Below, piece after piece: positions 1-36,785 of a stretch of DNA of 36,785 bases. The notes below the pieces were generated by a model. It ran no database searches. It worked only from the letters and a program-made list of their open reading frames with translations, and had not been told where the DNA came from. The stretch covers positions 1 through 36,785 of the IMG/VR virus record IMGVR_UViG_3300020119_000228; one strand, given 5' to 3'. Position numbers and translations under genes: made by a program. This DNA comes from a virus. How positions within the stretch are numbered: position 1 is the first letter of the stretch; every line of letters starts with the position of its first letter.

Positions 1-127
1 AACTGCTAGCCATGCAAAATTAATATTTCCAGCTAAATTAACGCTTCCTATTTCTTTTTTATTGTAGAATTTATCTATCTGGAAAACTCTTGTGCTATCT
101 ACAACATAAGAAAAATTAATGGTTTTA
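1..127. repeat. Terminal direct repeat, left copy (circular join)
   Basis: The first 127 bases are identical to the last 127 (36659-36785). A repeat of exactly 127 bases looks like the k-mer overlap left when an assembler closes a circular contig rather than a biological terminal repeat. The unique circle is 36,658 bp. The gp10-like reading frame continues through the join without a stop, which supports real circularity or circular permutation. Confidence 0.95.
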
Positions 128-10940: not shown

Positions 10941-10977
10941 AATTACTCCCTGTAATTAAGTTTTTGTTAGAAGTAGG

Positions 10978-11052
10978 TTGGGCGTGATGGATTCGAACCA
11001 CCTACCTTCAGATTGTGAGCCTGACGGGCTAGCCTTCATGCCCCGACGCCCA
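10978..11052 (-). tRNA. tRNA-Val (anticodon CAC)
   Basis: Complete 75-base cloverleaf on the minus strand: acceptor TGGGCGT/ACGCCCA (7 bp), D-stem GGGC/GCCC with loop ATGAAGGCTA, anticodon stem TCAGG/TCTGA (one G-T pair) with loop CTCACAA, variable AGGTA, T-arm GGTGG-TTCGAAT-CCATC, discriminator A. The anticodon CAC reads GTG. Oddities are a T-A first pair and C instead of the near-universal T at position 8. CCA is not encoded. It lies at the promoter-proximal end of the late strand. Confidence 0.85.
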
Positions 11053-12882: not shown

Positions 12883-13086
12883 TTAAATCAAATTAACCAT
12901 ATCTTGCATGCCTGTTGACTTCCAAACACTTACATATAATTCCAGTATTTCTTCTGAAATTAGCCCCTCTAACATAGCTTTTTTATCTTCTTTGCTCAAT
13001 AGCTTAGTGGAAATTAAGCTTGGTGACACGCCTAGTTTAAATCCTATTTTTGAGAGGATTTTTTTGCATTCTTGTTCGCTACGCAT
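12883..13086 (-). CDS. Small protein coupled to the replication initiator
   Basis: 67-aa helical protein (MRSEQECKKILSKIGFKLG; SLISTKLLSKEDKKAMLEGL). ATG 13086 lies inside the last codons of the initiator gene (8-base overlap), so the two are translated together. In lambda the gene after O is the helicase loader P, but this protein is far too short and has no ATPase motif. It may be an adaptor; unknown. Confidence 0.65.
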   Translation of the reverse strand: MRSEQECKKILSKIGFKLGVSPSLISTKLLSKEDKKAMLEGLISEEILELYVSVWKSTGMQDMVNLI

Positions 13087-13936
13087 AAAGCTCCCTCACA
13101 CTTACAGGCTTACCTGAACCAAGTGATTTCTTGAGAGCACCAAGAGAATTCTTCCCGCTCTCAGAAATTATGTGTTTGATATTGTTCATCGATATGCGTT
13201 CTTGTTCATACTGCTTTTGTTTATGTTCTTGGCGAATGCGATCTTCTTCGGCTTGAGTTTTATCATTTCCCTTATATCCATATGGTTGGTTCCATTTACC
13301 TTCGCGAATCTTTTTGAGTGCTATGTTAATTTTTTTGTTTATTTCTTTCGGGTCTGATTCATTGCCGATATAAAATAATATTTGGTTTTGCAGCTCATCC
13401 TCAAGCACTATACTTTTATTTCCAATGGCTCTCAAAATATGGGTTTTTACTTCAACAGAAGAAGAAAGAACAGGAACAGTCTTTTGTTTTGTTTTATTAA
13501 TAATTCTTTTATTTATATTTATTCTTTTATTTATAGGTGCTTGAAAACCAGATTGTGGGAAACCCGTATTGTGGGTTTTTGATGACTTATCCACAGGAGA
13601 ATCACCACAATACGGGTTTTCCGTATTCTGGGTTTTTCTCCTCAAAATTGTCTGCCATTCTATAATTCTTCCTTCATCATCTCTCACAGAAGTAACTTCT
13701 AAAAGGCCAATATTTTTTAGATATTTAAAGCATGTATCAATATGCTCTCTGCCGCATTCAAAATGATTCTGAAGATGTTTTTTGCAAATGATAAATCCGG
13801 AGGGTTTGGAAGCTAAGTAGCAATACACACCAAGTGCACCAGTGTGTTTTATTTGGCAGATTGTTTCGTTTATGATTGTGGTAAAGCCATTTTCTTCATG
13901 CAATAAAGTATTTTTTGTATTTTTTTCAATACTCAT
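13079..13936 (-). CDS. Lambda-O-like replication initiator
   Basis: 285-aa protein. Residues about 20-95 form a winged helix of the phage replication-protein type: TGALGVYCYLASKPSGFIIC, then KHLQNHFECGREHIDTCFKYLKNIGLLEV. Residues 96-150 are low-complexity, with repeats rich in N, P and G and then NKRIN repeats; this stretch is encoded by DNA that looks like an origin (13503-13632). The C-terminal half has a helical NQILFYIGNESDPKEINKKI region and a Q/E/K-rich coiled coil, presumably for partner contact. This is the plan of lambda O, which binds iterons inside its own gene. AAAGGA precedes ATG 13936. It belongs to the leftward early operon begun by the Cro-like gene. No sequence match to a named initiator is claimed. 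Confidence 0.7.
   Translation of the reverse strand: MSIEKNTKNTLLHEENGFTTIINETICQIKHTGALGVYCYLASKPSGFIICKKHLQNHFECGREHIDTCFKYLKNIGLLEVTSVRDDEGRIIEWQTILRRKTQNTENPYCGDSPVDKSSKTHNTGFPQSGFQAPINKRININKRIINKTKQKTVPVLSSSVEVKTHILRAIGNKSIVLEDELQNQILFYIGNESDPKEINKKINIALKKIREGKWNQPYGYKGNDKTQAEEDRIRQEHKQKQYEQERISMNNIKHIISESGKNSLGALKKSLGSGKPVSVRELYA
13503..13632. other. Predicted replication origin inside the initiator gene
   Basis: Three parts lie side by side. Iteron-like 12-base elements of the form CC..ATT.TGGG occur at 13548-13559, 13564-13575 and 13621-13632, with an inverted copy at 13605-13616; two of these form a perfect 15-base inverted repeat (13560-13574 and 13605-13619). Between them lies a perfect consensus DnaA box TTATCCACA (13587-13595). 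Next to them is an AT-rich stretch (13486-13540) with a 15-base direct repeat (13503-13517, 13521-13535), a likely unwinding element. This is the layout of lambda ori. Confidence 0.65.
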
Positions 13937-17992: not shown

Positions 17993-18171
17993 TGAATGAT
18001 AATCAAATAAAAGATCACGTATGGTTATACCATAATGAAATTACTAAAAGTCCTGAATTTACTTGTCCATGTTGCCTTAGAAAATTCATACCTTATCTTC
18101 ATGAAAGTAAGAAATACTGCTCTAAATCTTGTAAAAATTCACATTTGAAAAAAAGGAAAAATAATGGATGA
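17992..18171 (+). CDS. Small zinc-finger protein after bet
   Basis: 59-aa protein starting inside the bet stop (TAATG), with AGGAGG upstream. CPCC (residues 25-28) and YCSKSC (42-47) give a CxxC...CxxxC site, with YCS resembling treble-clef zinc fingers of small DNA- or RNA-associated phage proteins. Basic C-terminus HLKKRKNNG. Probably nucleic-acid-binding. Confidence 0.7.
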   Translation: MNDNQIKDHVWLYHNEITKSPEFTCPCCLRKFIPYLHESKKYCSKSCKNSHLKKRKNNG

Positions 18172-18580
18172 AATAAAAACCCCTAAAAAAGAAAAAGGTG
18201 CGTCATGGGGAGAGTGCACGCACCACGACTGCGGAAAAAAGTGCACTTATATTGATCCCACACATAACTCCAAAGCAGGAATTGAAATTTCTGGAGTTGG
18301 AGTACCTAATAAAAGTGTTTGCATAGAACCCACTCATATTGTAGGAATATCAAGTGCTGGCGGTGGAATTAACATTAATAAAAAAAACAAAAACAAAAAC
18401 AAACAAGGAGTAGTAAAAGAAAGGTCCACTAGATACATGATATTAGATTCAATTTTTGATGATTGGTCCATAAGCCAGAAGGTATACTTTTGCGGATGCA
18501 TTCAAGTTAATAAATCACATAACATAACAAAGGAAGATGTGCGAACTTATAACAAATGTCAAAGTCATAAGGATAAATAA
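18164..18580 (+). CDS. Hypothetical cysteine-rich protein
   Basis: 138-aa protein. The N-terminus has CTHHDCGKKC (near 18-27), then a low-complexity linker with alternating N and K (near 72-80), and the C-terminus VYFCGCIQVNKSH...YNKCQSH. The end CGCI..(about 18)..YN.C..H recurs in the 66-aa protein at 18837. Two separate metal sites joined by a linker are likely. Overlaps the previous gene by 8 bases. Confidence 0.65.
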   Translation: MDEIKTPKKEKGASWGECTHHDCGKKCTYIDPTHNSKAGIEISGVGVPNKSVCIEPTHIVGISSAGGGININKKNKNKNKQGVVKERSTRYMILDSIFDDWSISQKVYFCGCIQVNKSHNITKEDVRTYNKCQSHKDK

Positions 18581-20549: not shown

Positions 20550-20683
20550 AAAATAAAAAAAATAATTGATAAATTCGAACCCTAATTCTATCCAAAACAT
20601 TTATTGGAAAGTACCCCATACGGAGCCAATTCGAGATTAAGGTTCTCGGTAATTTTATTATAACAAAATAGGATATAAGTGCA

Positions 20684-23093: not shown

Positions 23094-24005
23094 TTAAATG
23101 TACTCTGTAATTATTACGATACCACTTCCTCCTGTACCACCATTTGTAAGTGCACCAATAACGCCTTGAATTGCAGAACCTGAACCACCAGCACCTGTAT
23201 TTGCTGGAGCTGCGTTTCCTGATTGATTAGTCCCTGTAACTACTAATGCTAATCCTCCTCCTCCTAGTCTTGTCGATCCACCGGTACCACTTATTGATGT
23301 GGTAGCCCCAAATACAATTGCATATGATCCAGGAGCTCCAGCACCATTAACGGAACCTCCAGAACCAGGTGTTGCACCAGCACCACCTACGGCATTTCCC
23401 CAACCTGCTATAGCTGATACCATGGCACCGCCTCCCTGGCCCCCATTTACAGTAAGTAACGATCCTACAGTTGTTGTTCCTCCAGGATTGCCTGGGCTTC
23501 CACTTACTGTGCTTCCTCCGGCTCCAATTGTAATTATTTGTGAATCAGCAATTTGTTCTGCTGAATATAGACCTCTACCATAACCCCCTGATCCGCCACC
23601 ACCACCAGCCCATCCAGTCCCAGCAGCTGCAAACCCAGTGCTTCCACCTCCGCCTCCGCCTCCTAAGGCTTCAATCAAACAAAAATTCATATCTGGATTA
23701 GGAATATATGTTCCTGATGAGGTAAATACCCTCAATCCTATAACTACTGATGTTTCAGGAATTTGTTGATCAAATCTTTGTTCAGTTGCATTTCTAGTGA
23801 AGAATCCTTGACCGTCAGCATAGAATATATAAACACCATCTGTATTTTCCCATTCAAATTCCCCGTTTTGAAGAAGTTGTATGTTTTCATCTTGGGCTGT
23901 TAAATAACCACTTGTAGTTATTGCTACTAAATTATCAGTAGTAACAATCCTAATTATTCTTGGCTTTATTCCCCAATCGCTTGTAATATCGGTTATAGGC
24001 ATCAT
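23094..24005 (-). CDS. Glycine-rich tail/fibre protein, paralogue 1
   Basis: 303-aa protein in two parts. Residues 1-90 (MMPITDITSDWGIKPRIIRI...) form the N-terminal module shared by all four genes of the array, with TTDNLVAITTSGYLTAQ and FEWENTDGVYIFYADGQGFF. After FCLIEALGGGGGGG (near 108-121) comes a glycine-rich domain with many GG, GAGG and PGNPGG turns, ending IVIITEYI. Such glycine-rich C-terminal domains occur in phage receptor-binding proteins, where they form polyglycine-type sandwiches exposing variable loops. AAGGA precedes the start. Last of the array. Confidence 0.75.
   Translation of the reverse strand: MMPITDITSDWGIKPRIIRIVTTDNLVAITTSGYLTAQDENIQLLQNGEFEWENTDGVYIFYADGQGFFTRNATEQRFDQQIPETSVVIGLRVFTSSGTYIPNPDMNFCLIEALGGGGGGGSTGFAAAGTGWAGGGGGSGGYGRGLYSAEQIADSQIITIGAGGSTVSGSPGNPGGTTTVGSLLTVNGGQGGGAMVSAIAGWGNAVGGAGATPGSGGSVNGAGAPGSYAIVFGATTSISGTGGSTRLGGGGLALVVTGTNQSGNAAPANTGAGGSGSAIQGVIGALTNGGTGGSGIVIITEYI
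23850..23895. repeat. 46-bp exact repeat, copy 1
   Basis: Identical to 24812-24857, encoding DENIQLLQNGEFEW in two neighbouring paralogues that differ elsewhere. A sign of recent duplication or gene conversion. Confidence 0.85.
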
Positions 24006-24055
24006 TATTTCCTTATAATTAATTGTTTTAATTACATATCATTCATTGACATGTT

Positions 24056-24964
24056 CTAAATGTATTCAGTAATTAACACTACTCCTGAGCCGCCCGCACC
24101 ACCTAAAGTAGGCGCTCCAGTAACACCTTGTATTGCTGATCCTCCTCCTCCTGATCCAGTGTTATCTTGAGCAGGAGATCCAATGTTGTTTGATCCTATA
24201 GCCACAAGTGAGTTTCCTGATCCTCCTAACCTTGTTGCTCCACCAGCTCCACTAATAGATGCTGAAACACCAACATAAAATGAATTAAATCCTGGAGCCC
24301 CTCTAGAATTAACCGCTCCTCCAGTTCCAGCTGCACCTCCAGCTCCTCCTTGAGCTCCATTAAAACCTGCAGTAGCTACTCCTGTTGATAATCCTCCTAA
24401 TCCTCCATTGGCAACTAACAAAGTTCCAACGCTTGTTGTTCCTCCTGGATTACCATCGTCATTTGCTACTGGAGTACCACCTGCTCCAATTGTAACTACT
24501 TGTGATGTTCCAATCTGAGCAGCTGTATATATTCCTCTACCATAGCTACCCGCTCCACCGCCACCTCCAGCGTATCCAGTCCCAGCAGCTGCGGTGCTTG
24601 TTCCTCCTCCAGCTCCACCACCACCAATGGCTTCTATAATGCAAAAAGTCATACCTGGTGTAGGTATATAATTACCAGAAGCAGTTATTGTCCGTTGTGC
24701 AACTACAACGGTTTCAGTTGGTATTTCTACGTCAAATCTTTGTTCTTCTGCATTATGAGTAAAGAATCCTTGTCCATCTGAATAGCTTATTAAAACTCCA
24801 TCTGTTGGAAACCATTCAAATTCCCCGTTTTGAAGAAGTTGTATGTTTTCATCTTGGTCAACTAAATAACCAGATGTGGTTATTGTGTTAAAATCATCTG
24901 TAGTAACAACACGAATTATTCTAGGATTTATTCCTTCATCAGTTGTTATGCTTAAAATAGCCAT
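24056..24964 (-). CDS. Glycine-rich tail/fibre protein, paralogue 2
   Basis: 302-aa paralogue of the previous gene: MAILSITTDEGINPRIIRV at the start, QDENIQLLQNGEFEWFPTDG in the N-terminal module, FCIIEAIGGGGAGGG at the domain junction and VVLITEYI at the end. The N-terminal module and the FCxIEAxGGGGxGGG junction are conserved while the glycine-rich loops differ, the pattern expected of a receptor-binding set under diversifying selection. AAGGAG precedes ATG 24964. Confidence 0.75.
   Translation of the reverse strand: MAILSITTDEGINPRIIRVVTTDDFNTITTSGYLVDQDENIQLLQNGEFEWFPTDGVLISYSDGQGFFTHNAEEQRFDVEIPTETVVVAQRTITASGNYIPTPGMTFCIIEAIGGGGAGGGTSTAAAGTGYAGGGGGAGSYGRGIYTAAQIGTSQVVTIGAGGTPVANDDGNPGGTTSVGTLLVANGGLGGLSTGVATAGFNGAQGGAGGAAGTGGAVNSRGAPGFNSFYVGVSASISGAGGATRLGGSGNSLVAIGSNNIGSPAQDNTGSGGGGSAIQGVTGAPTLGGAGGSGVVLITEYI
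24812..24857. repeat. 46-bp exact repeat, copy 2
   Basis: See 23850-23895; identical over 46 bases, within the N-terminal module of the second paralogue. Confidence 0.85.
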
Positions 24965-24975
24965 TTTTTATCTCC

Positions 24976-25887
24976 TTATAAAAATTCGGTTATTATTACT
25001 ATCCCAGCTGATCCATTTCCTCCAGCAGATGCAGAAAAATCTATATTTTGAAGTGCTGCTCCAGAACCGCCAGAACCTGTAGAAGGTCTTGCCGCTATCC
25101 CTGTTTCACTGCTAGAAGATGCAATAACGGAAGCCCCTCCTCCCCCTAAATTCGTAGATGCGCCTGCACCACTTATGGCAAATACATTACCAACTACTAA
25201 TGAAGCAAATCCTGAAGCTCCGCGACCATTAAATGAGCCACCCTCACCCTGCGGTCCTCCTCCTCCACCATTCGTTGACCCAAAATTGTTAATATTAGAG
25301 GACATAAAATTTCCTCCATTACCACCGAATGCAGTTAATAAATCACCAAAAAAACTAAGTCCTCCTGGATCTCCTGGAGCTCCTGTTCTTCCAGTACCAC
25401 CTAAACCAACGCCAACTAATTGAGATGAACCTATTTGTGACGCAGTGAATAAACCAATGCTATAAGCTCCTGCTCCTCCTCCTCCTGCAGCGCTTCCAAC
25501 TCCTAAAACTGTAGAAAATTGCGTACCACCTCCAGCTCCACCACCTCCATAAACTTCAATGAAACAAAAATTCATAGAGGGAGTGGGGATATATGTTCCT
25601 GGAGAAGTAAATACTTGTTGAGCAACAATAATTCCAGCTTGATCTATAGCTTCATCAAATCTTTGATCTGCTTCATTATGTGTAAAAAATCCTTGTCCAC
25701 CATTGTAAAATATATATACACTGTCAGTTGGAAGCCATTGAAACAAACCATTTTGAATTGCTTTTATATTTGATATTTGTGTCGTTAAATATCCTGTAGT
25801 CGTAATTGCAGTAAATGTATCAGTTGTAACTACTCGTACAATTCTTGGATCTATACCTTGATCTGTAGAAATATTTGTAATAGCCAT
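24976..25887 (-). CDS. Glycine-rich tail/fibre protein, paralogue 3
   Basis: 303-aa third member: MAITNISTDQGIDPRIVRV, the module ending GQGFFTHNEADQRFDEA, then FCFIEVYGGGGAGGG and a glycine/serine-rich C-terminus ending IVIITEFL. More diverged from the other two than they are from each other. AAGGA precedes the start; 11 bases separate it from the next gene. Confidence 0.75.
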   Translation of the reverse strand: MAITNISTDQGIDPRIVRVVTTDTFTAITTTGYLTTQISNIKAIQNGLFQWLPTDSVYIFYNGGQGFFTHNEADQRFDEAIDQAGIIVAQQVFTSPGTYIPTPSMNFCFIEVYGGGGAGGGTQFSTVLGVGSAAGGGGAGAYSIGLFTASQIGSSQLVGVGLGGTGRTGAPGDPGGLSFFGDLLTAFGGNGGNFMSSNINNFGSTNGGGGGPQGEGGSFNGRGASGFASLVVGNVFAISGAGASTNLGGGGASVIASSSSETGIAARPSTGSGGSGAALQNIDFSASAGGNGSAGIVIITEFL

Positions 25888-35228: not shown

Positions 35229-36784
35229 TATCTTGCTCCCCCGCTAACCGGCCTTGTATTGCGAACAGCGCCCAATATCACAATAGGAGCAGAACTAACG
35301 CAAATTAGACGATAACAACGATTTCTGCTGACATCTAGCTCATACCAACGCATACGCCATCTGTATTCACCTAAAGGGCTAAATTCCCTGTTATCGGCAC
35401 TAACAAAAGTAACTCCCCCATCATCGCTATAATAAAGTTCGATATGTGGCTTAAATAATGCGTTATAATGATTATCATCGAATGCTGGTGTATCACTTCC
35501 TTCTGCAACAATAAATTCATCATCCTCTGTAACAATGTAAACAGGTATTTGTGGTGTACTAGACTCATCAATAATAAATTCAGCATTTAAAAAAGGTGCA
35601 TTACTTCTATAAAATGTCCTGTTACCAAATACAAAATCAATCTCAACCCAATCATCAATAAATTCAGAATAATCTGGTAAAAATATTTGCTGTGTCACAA
35701 GTTCATATCGCATTGGATATTTATTGAAAGCATCCGGAGCTTGTGGAAGTGCAGCAGTATTTCTCAATTCATTATGGTAAATATTTCCTGCCATTTCATA
35801 GATTGCAGGGTCATTTTGTACCGTTACCAAATGCTTATTATTAATATAAATATGATTTTGAATTCTGTTTCTTTCGCCATTTAATTCAATTACTCTGGAC
35901 CACGTTTGTGTCTCAAAATTGTATTCAATTGACGCTGAATTCTCTTGGATATCTAATTCACCAAAGTTAATGTATTCCCCGGCGCTTGCTCTATAAAAAA
36001 TGGTGTTTTCAAATTGATAAAGGAATCCCCTAGTTATTCCATTTAAAAACGGGCTTCCCGATTTTGTCTCGTCAAGCGTTCCTTCTAATAAAACATTGAT
36101 AGCCTGTGATGATATATTCTCAGGCTGGCCGCCGTTCGAAGCCATAAAGGCCACAAGCCCATTCCTATTTCGCGCAAGCCATACCATCCTGCCAAAATCG
36201 ACACTTAAACTAAATGAATCTGCAATGCCATAGTCCCAGTTGTATGATGTATTTAACTTCCACGGGAACTCACGAGTAACATTACCGACCGTTATTTGTG
36301 TTGGTATATTGGCCCAAATATCTGTCGTAAAATCACACATAATATATAGTTGAGCATGCAATACAGCCATTTGTAATATGATACTTGATGCCCTATTAAA
36401 TAAAGGAGAACCATTAATTGTGAAGCAATTAGTTAAATTTCCAGGACCTGGAGAATCTGAAAATAAATTAATCCTAGTCAGCGAATAATCTGGCGTATCT
36501 TTTGTGCTTACAAGAAATCTACTTCCAAATGAGGCCACAAAAGATGGCTTTTGAGGTGCATTAGGGTCGGTAACTACTCCATAAGTAACTGCTGTTCCAT
36601 TTTCAGTAATTACATAAATGTTGTGTTCATCAGTAAGTAATGCATAAACTAATGTACAAACTGCTAGCCATGCAAAATTAATATTTCCAGCTAAATTAAC
36701 GCTTCCTATTTCTTTTTTATTGTAGAATTTATCTATCTGGAAAACTCTTGTGCTATCTACAACATAAGAAAAATTAATGGTTTT
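35228..36784 (-). CDS. P22 gp10-like packaged-DNA stabilisation / tail hub protein, C-terminal part
   Basis: Continuation of the gene that starts at 333 across the circle join; within the window it is open at the right edge, with the last complete codon at 36782-36784. Bases 36659-36784 repeat the left end, so the unique part is 35228-36658. Frame and sequence run on without a stop through ...NFAWLAVCTLVYALL... at the join. Beta-propeller-like blades with FEWxx/GNTV-type turns (VNVLLEGTLDETKSGSPFLN) match gp10 family layout. In P22 this ring holds the tailspikes and needle and seals the channel. A GTG at 36538 should not be taken as the start. Confidence 0.85.
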   Translation of the reverse strand, partial: KTINFSYVVDSTRVFQIDKFYNKKEIGSVNLAGNINFAWLAVCTLVYALLTDEHNIYVITENGTAVTYGVVTDPNAPQKPSFVASFGSRFLVSTKDTPDYSLTRINLFSDSPGPGNLTNCFTINGSPLFNRASSIILQMAVLHAQLYIMCDFTTDIWANIPTQITVGNVTREFPWKLNTSYNWDYGIADSFSLSVDFGRMVWLARNRNGLVAFMASNGGQPENISSQAINVLLEGTLDETKSGSPFLNGITRGFLYQFENTIFYRASAGEYINFGELDIQENSASIEYNFETQTWSRVIELNGERNRIQNHIYINNKHLVTVQNDPAIYEMAGNIYHNELRNTAALPQAPDAFNKYPMRYELVTQQIFLPDYSEFIDDWVEIDFVFGNRTFYRSNAPFLNAEFIIDESSTPQIPVYIVTEDDEFIVAEGSDTPAFDDNHYNALFKPHIELYYSDDGGVTFVSADNREFSPLGEYRWRMRWYELDVSRNRCYRLICVSSAPIVILGAVRNTRPVSGGAR

Positions 36785-36785
36785 A
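36659..36785. repeat. Terminal direct repeat, right copy (circular join)
   Basis: Exact copy of bases 1-127; see there. Confidence 0.95.

What the first reader, a model, noticed from the sequence alone, without database searches (positions are those of the whole stretch)
13503..13632. Lambda-style replication origin embedded in the initiator gene
Four 12-base elements (three direct, one inverted), a perfect DnaA box TTATCCACA between them and an AT-rich tract with a 15-base direct repeat all lie inside codons about 100-145 of a winged-helix initiator, between its DNA-binding domain and C-terminal half. That is the layout of lambda O/ori, yet the protein is not recognisably O, and the DnaA box inside the iteron array is an extra feature suggesting joint use of phage initiator and host DnaA.
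Basis: partly seen in the sequence, partly recalled or inferred. Interest (0 to 1): 0.75.

Follow-up and report, generated by a model that had tools for sequence, protein, structure and literature searches.

The report
Phage replication origin inside initiator gene
A phage keeps its start site for DNA copying inside the gene for the protein that starts the copying, in the stretch encoding a floppy linker, and many related phages do the same; in some of them a landing site for the host's own starter protein DnaA is built in as well.

Summary
Four near-identical sites (CCASAATMYKG), one exact DnaA box (the only TTATCCACA in the 36.8-kb phage) and the least stable 50 bp of the genome lie in codons 102-150 of the initiator gene (13936..13079, minus strand), in a linker predicted to be disordered between a winged-helix domain and a variable C-terminal half. 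Relatives with 36-69% identical winged-helix domains keep the array: 25 of 36 inter-site distances are exactly 16 bp, with A-rich 5-bp spacers. The sites are read in all three frames, so selection acts on DNA, not protein. The DnaA box is exact in six arrays including this one (5 of the first 10; 0.017 expected), read as PVDK, SYPQ or LST. The sites are better described as imperfect dyads (CCAGA-A-TCTGG) than as direct repeats. It is most likely a lambda-style embedded origin: a known kind (lambda O, SPP1 gene 38, phage 80alpha ORF20), in a family with no Pfam or NCBIfam match, plus a plasmid-like DnaA box. New leads: the C-terminal half is swapped exactly at the origin, and DnaA boxes occur mostly in phages without a lambda-P-type loader (1/6 versus 7/9, p=0.04, not phylogenetically corrected). 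Replication and binding are untested.

The parts
13079..13936 (-). Initiator gene, 285 aa: winged-helix domain (residues ~30-100), disordered linker (104-154), helical C-terminal half (160-271)
   Evidence: ORF; PHROG 186 DnaD-like helicase loader E=1.6e-7 and PHROG 270 replication initiation protein E=3.9e-5; AF2 pLDDT ~90 for residues 31-100 and 32-43 for blocks 101-150; Foldseek top PDB hit is Gram-positive primosome protein DnaB N-terminal region 5wtn, prob 1.00, E=1.2e-3
13621..13631 (-). Iteron 1, CCAGAATACGG
   Evidence: conserved in relatives
13605..13615 (+). Iteron 2, CCACAATACGG, inverted relative to the gene, 16 bp from iteron 1, spacer AAAAC
13587..13595 (+). DnaA box TTATCCACA between iterons 2 and 3
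   Evidence: only exact copy in window; recurs in arrays of L003, L004, L010, L020, L036; P about 3e-12 for 5 of 10 linkers
13564..13574 (-). Iteron 3, CCACAATACGG
13548..13558 (-). Iteron 4, CCACAATCTGG, 16 bp from iteron 3, spacer GTTTC
13486..13535 (.). AT-rich tract, presumed unwinding element, with 15-bp repeat TATAAATAAAAGAAT at 13535..13521 and 13517..13503
   Evidence: least stable 50 bp of the window; gene minimum of GC lies just after the array in 9 of 10 first-set family members
12883..13086 (-). 67-aa gene directly downstream; in L047 and L052 a lambda-P-like loader gene sits between the initiator and a gene for this small protein, so the loader slot is empty here
   Evidence: ORF comparison, similarity by inspection; no lambda-P, DnaB or DnaC family match in the window

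Best explanation
This is the phage's replication origin, embedded in the linker-coding part of its initiator gene. The winged-helix domain, probably as a dimer, binds four imperfect-dyad 11-mers arranged as two 16-bp-spaced pairs. The resulting nucleoprotein complex, helped by host DnaA bound to the box between the pairs, strains and opens the adjacent AT-rich tract; host DnaB helicase is then loaded there by the C-terminal half of the initiator and/or through DnaA, since the phage has no recognisable helicase or loader. Shown: the sequence elements, their DNA-level conservation in relatives, the disordered linker (predicted), the weakest duplex, and no match to DnaB, DnaC or lambda-P families. 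Inferred: binding, dimerisation, opening, DnaA use and helicase loading. The confidence given is for the origin itself; for use of DnaA I put about 0.6.
For: Elements confirmed and unique in the window. Relatives found by protein similarity alone carry the same sites in their linkers: 5 of 6 in the first two searches, and L036, the L046 group and L047 in the third. 25 of 36 inter-site distances are exactly 16 bp with A-rich spacers. Sites fall in all three frames and are encoded as different peptides, which excludes a protein-level cause. A scan of IMG/VR with only the paired-site DNA pattern gave 9 hits, all in initiator-like linkers, while the 9 hits in 85,000 cellular genomes fell in unrelated regions, several of them in or near housekeeping genes such as accA and atpD. 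DnaA box exact in 5 of 10 linkers versus 0.017 expected, with different frames and strands. AT-rich tract is the least stable 50 bp of the window. Distant winged-helix initiators of Staphylococcus, Lactobacillus and Gordonia phages also carry repeated or palindromic sites at about 15 bp in the same linker. Embedded origins are established for lambda, Stx and SPP1 phages and inferred genetically for 80alpha.
Against: No binding, footprint, replication or read-depth data. GC skew does not mark a clear bidirectional origin here; it largely follows transcription direction. Some relatives (L009, L039, L040, L052-L055) lack this site consensus; their linkers hold other CC...GG repeats, judged by eye. 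The DnaA box is absent from most relatives, so it is not essential to the design. The codon-shuffle test on the window alone is only moderately strong (p about 0.0035).
Confidence: 0.86

Rival explanations
1. The sites are an operator: the initiator (or another regulator) binds inside the gene to limit its own transcription, and the true origin is elsewhere.
For: Winged-helix proteins often autoregulate (general knowledge); no experiment separates the two roles; an operator could also use dyad sites.
Against: The array lies about 300 bp into the gene, next to the weakest duplex of the gene in 9 of 10 members and of the genome, with DnaA boxes in six members; an operator needs neither. No second array of these sites exists in the window.
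Confidence: 0.07
2. It is an embedded origin, but the TTATCCACA is not used by DnaA in initiation; it is a by-product of the CCACA iteron core or serves transcription.
For: The box shares CCACA with the iterons and overlaps them in L036; most relatives lack an exact box. In lambda, DnaA is known to act through pR transcription (PMC7466680).
Against: The extra TTAT is not part of the iteron, yet exact boxes are about 300 times more frequent than expected and lie between iterons 2 and 3 in four of the five cases of the first set, in both orientations and different frames.
Confidence: 0.35
3. The repeats are a by-product of protein-level selection for a polar, repetitive linker.
For: The linker is predicted disordered and contains recurrent NT, NP and SG residues.
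Against: The same DNA word is read in three frames and on both strands as QNT, PYCG, STIL, NLE, PESG and others; a 16-bp period is not a multiple of three.
Confidence: 0.01
4. The repeats are a hot spot for module exchange rather than, or as well as, an origin: recombination at the array swaps C-terminal halves.
For: C-terminal halves change at the array: window and L001 share a 69% identical winged-helix domain but no detectable C-terminal similarity, while L001 and L054 share 69% C-terminal identity with only 36% in the winged-helix domain.
Against: Swapping would not by itself preserve 16-bp spacing, a DnaA box or the AT-rich tract. It is probably a consequence of a shared origin sequence.
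Confidence: 0.05

Closest known systems
Phage lambda O protein and ori-lambda (also Stx phages)
   Same: Origin in the middle of the initiator gene, four iterons followed by an AT-rich tract (PMC7466680), sites with dyad character (lambda iterons bind O dimers, PMC5043065)
   Different: No Pfam match to lambda O; 11-bp sites at 16-bp spacing instead of about 18-19-bp iterons (lambda figure from memory); DnaA box inside the array; no lambda-P-type loader found in this phage
SPP1 gene 38/oriL and Staphylococcus phage 80alpha ORF20
   Same: [quoted passage not shown] PMC5499656)
   Different: SPP1 has a second origin and its own helicase and loader; sequence relationship to gp38 itself was not tested; no DnaA box is described in the passages read
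DnaD-like phage initiators of Staphylococcus, Lactobacillus and Gordonia phages (PHROG 186, PHROG 270; 'RepA-like')
   Same: Weakly similar winged-helix domain (tblastn E 2e-5 to 0.5) and repeats or palindromes at about 15-bp spacing in the linker after it
   Different: Different site sequence and period; the Staphylococcus 459, Lactobacillus Lv-1 and Gordonia ObLaDi loci have a helicase or loader gene downstream
Iteron plasmids with DnaA boxes (P1, F, RK2, pSC101, R6K)
   Same: Iterons, DnaA box and AT-rich tract together in one origin (PMC5043065)
   Different: Plasmid origins usually lie outside the rep gene (general knowledge) and bind monomers through mostly direct repeats; here the whole origin is coding sequence with dyad sites

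Membership tests
Lambda O family (Pfam Phage_rep_O) | Sequence match to the lambda O family model | tested here: not met
   No lambda O family hit at E<=0.1 in Pfam-A
Lambda O family (Pfam Phage_rep_O) | Origin with iterons plus AT-rich tract in the middle of the initiator gene | tested here: met
   works like lambda ori, but is not a member by sequence
Lambda O family (Pfam Phage_rep_O) | Partner helicase loader lambda P encoded next door | tested here: not met
   No PF06992 match in the window; present beside the initiator in several relatives
DnaD-like phage initiators / replication initiation proteins (PHROG 186, 270) | Profile match and DnaD/DnaB-type winged helix | tested here: met
   PHROG 186 E=1.6e-7; top PDB structural match 5wtn, primosome protein DnaB, prob 1.00 but E=1.2e-3 and low TM-score
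Initiator-embedded phage origins | Repeated sites conserved at DNA level inside the initiator gene | tested here: met
Initiator-embedded phage origins | Initiator binds the sites and replication starts there | not testable with these tools
   Needs footprint, origin plasmid assay or read depth
DnaA-assisted iteron origins | Exact DnaA box beside iterons, beyond chance | tested here: met
DnaA-assisted iteron origins | DnaA binding and requirement | not testable with these tools
   No biochemical or genetic data

The most novel reading that the evidence does not exclude
In this family the DnaA box is a substitute for a phage-encoded helicase loader: phages that lost, or never had, the lambda-P-like gene next to the initiator place a DnaA box among their embedded iterons and use host DnaA to bring in DnaB, while loader-carrying relatives do without the box. 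Five of six boxed arrays lie in records without any recognised loader or helicase; seven of nine unboxed non-redundant cases have one (Fisher p=0.04). The tree allows too few independent comparisons (2 pairs) to test it, and L036 (box and loader), L002 and L017 (neither) are exceptions.
Probability: 0.25. Interest if true: 0.7.

Novelty: new variant of a known kind. Interest (0 to 1): 0.5.

Why it matters
It adds a clear, comparative example of a replication origin written into coding sequence, in an environmental phage family with no confident Pfam or NCBIfam match. The conserved array, its fixed 16-bp period and its DnaA box give short, testable targets. The variation among relatives (box or no box, loader or no loader, swapped C-terminal half) is a natural experiment on how phages recruit the host helicase. 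A pattern of paired sites in a linker can also locate initiators and origins in unannotated phage genomes: the DNA pattern alone found initiator-like genes.

Tried and rejected
Protein-level cause of the repeats: rejected by frame shifts. Hairpin/terminator: a terminator-like hit (13609-13627, +) exists, but three such hits were found in the 4-kb region against 1.8 expected, the T-run is absent at the equivalent place in L003 (by eye), and iterons 3-4 are direct in most relatives. RNA element: Rfam finds nothing at the locus. GC skew as origin marker: uninformative. First paired-site DNA scan used a mis-registered pattern and found nothing; corrected. Protein scan of cellular genomes found no relative, and the DNA scan there gave only hits in unrelated regions, so no host could be named. 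DnaB and DnaC searches in the first ten records were negative. PDB search by sequence gave only designed armadillo-repeat matches and weak noise. Phylogenetically independent pairs for box versus loader: only two, no power. Literature searches found no paper describing a DnaA box within an initiator-embedded phage origin, but the library is partial.

Full report
What was checked. The window is a 36,785-bp virus record with an exact 127-bp repeat at its two ends, so it is probably a complete, circularly closed assembly. Capsid, portal and terminase genes match phage families, and the portal is distantly related to those of Vibrio, Shewanella and Rhodoferax podoviruses. The initiator is the 285-aa ORF 13936..13079 on the minus strand. 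Every element in the finding is present at the stated place: four 12-mers with no further copy within two mismatches, the only exact TTATCCACA in the window, and a 15-base repeat in the AT-rich tract. The segment 13486-13535 is the least stable 50-bp stretch of the whole window by nearest-neighbour energies.

Is it chance? Holding the protein fixed and shuffling synonymous codons gave four such copies in 7 of 2000 trials. This is suggestive but not decisive on its own; the relatives decide it.

Relatives. Protein searches in IMG/VR found about twenty relatives with 36-69% identical winged-helix domains. Of the six found in the first two searches, independent of any DNA motif, five carry the site CCASAATMYKG in the same linker. 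Three further members (L017, L018, L020) were first retrieved through the DNA pattern, so for them one pair of sites is true by construction. Across the family, 25 of 36 distances between neighbouring sites are exactly 16 bp, and the 5-bp spacers are mostly A-rich (AAAAC, AAAAT, AAAAA, AAAAG and similar). Because 16 is not a multiple of three, successive sites are read in different frames and give unrelated peptides. Selection therefore acts on DNA.

Nature of the sites. The 38 sites of the first ten members average to CCAGA-A-TCTGG, an imperfect dyad: the outermost pair is complementary in 38 of 38 sites and the pair flanking the centre in 36 of 38 (part of this follows from the search consensus). 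Orientation is thus partly a matter of reading, and binding by dimers, as for lambda O, is plausible. Divergent members (L009, L039, L040, L052-L055) have other CC...GG repeats in the same place (by inspection). Distant winged-helix initiators of Staphylococcus, Lactobacillus and Gordonia phages have about 15-bp-spaced repeats or palindromes there too.

DnaA box. TTATCCACA is exact in the linkers of the window, L003, L004, L010 and L020 (5 of the first 10; 0.017 expected from first-order Markov sequences of the same linkers, P about 3e-12), and in L036. It is read as PVDK, SYPQ, LSTG or LSTD, in different frames and strands. In four of the five it lies between iterons 2 and 3. Relatedness among the members makes this probability too small, but the frame and strand differences argue for several origins; the tree needs four changes for five boxed rows.

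Protein. AlphaFold2 gives a confident winged-helix domain (residues 31-100), a disordered stretch 104-154 that coincides with the origin, and a less certain helical C-terminal half. The closest solved structure by Foldseek is the N-terminal region of Gram-positive primosome protein DnaB (5wtn; E=1.2e-3). Among predicted viral structures the matches are phage helix-turn-helix proteins, RepA-like initiators and a replisome organizer. The protein has weak but significant PHROG matches to DnaD-like helicase loaders and replication initiation proteins, and no Pfam or NCBIfam assignment.

Module boundary. C-terminal halves change at the array: window and L001 share 69% winged-helix identity with no detectable C-terminal similarity, whereas L001 and L054 share 69% C-terminal identity but 36% winged-helix identity. 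In L051 the winged-helix gene is cut short just before the array and followed by a different gene, which looks like a replaced replication module.

Helicase loading. None of the first ten records has a DnaB or DnaC family match. A lambda-P-like loader lies in 12 relatives, directly downstream of the initiator in those inspected. In the window that slot is empty: the initiator is followed at once by a 67-aa protein that in L047 and L052 follows the loader. Counting non-redundant cases, a loader or helicase is found in 1 of 6 boxed and 7 of 9 unboxed members (Fisher p=0.04). With two independent pairs on the tree this cannot be tested properly and stays a hypothesis; some records are fragments.

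Conclusion. The finding is a lambda-style, initiator-embedded origin with a plasmid-like DnaA box. The kind is known: lambda and Stx phages (PMC7466680), SPP1 gene 38 (PMC6316719) and 80alpha ORF20 (PMC5499656). DnaA boxes beside iterons are standard in plasmids (PMC5043065). I found no description of the combination in this protein family, in a partial library. Binding, opening, DnaA use and replication are inferred.

Noticed in passing
window 1-127 and 36659-36785: Exact 127-bp direct repeat at the two ends, consistent with a circularly closed complete phage genome.
   Followed up: partly
window 20574-20644 (-): Rfam DUF3800-IX RNA (RF02968) above its gathering score (42.2 versus 36.8 bits), an RNA of unknown function in this phage.
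   Followed up: no
window 18164-18580 (+): 138-aa ORF without Pfam or PHROG match whose middle encodes GGGININKKNKNKNK in an A-rich tract next to near-repeats GATCCCACACATA / GAACCCACTCATA; resembles an origin-like linker but was not tested.
   Followed up: no
window 12883-13086 (-); L047, L052, L002, L055 downstream of the initiator: Small conserved protein (KKILxKIGxxxxVSPxLISTRLL) recurring just downstream of the initiator or its loader in several relatives; function unknown.
   Followed up: partly
L051 4913-5600: Winged-helix initiator gene truncated at codon 101, just before where the origin would start, followed by a different gene and a lambda-P-like loader elsewhere in the record: apparent replacement of the replication module.
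   Followed up: partly
L016 363-1256 (reverse strand) and L022 3981-5249: Different winged-helix proteins (by inspection) with perfect CCAGAATCCGG/CCGGATTCTGG pairs in their linkers, suggesting the same site design in unrelated or very distant initiators.
   Followed up: partly
window 23094-25887 (-): Three tandem, similar glycine-rich proteins of 302-303 aa, possibly tail or receptor-binding variants.
   Followed up: no
window 10976-11052 (-): tRNA-Val (CAC) gene near the terminase small subunit gene.
   Followed up: no
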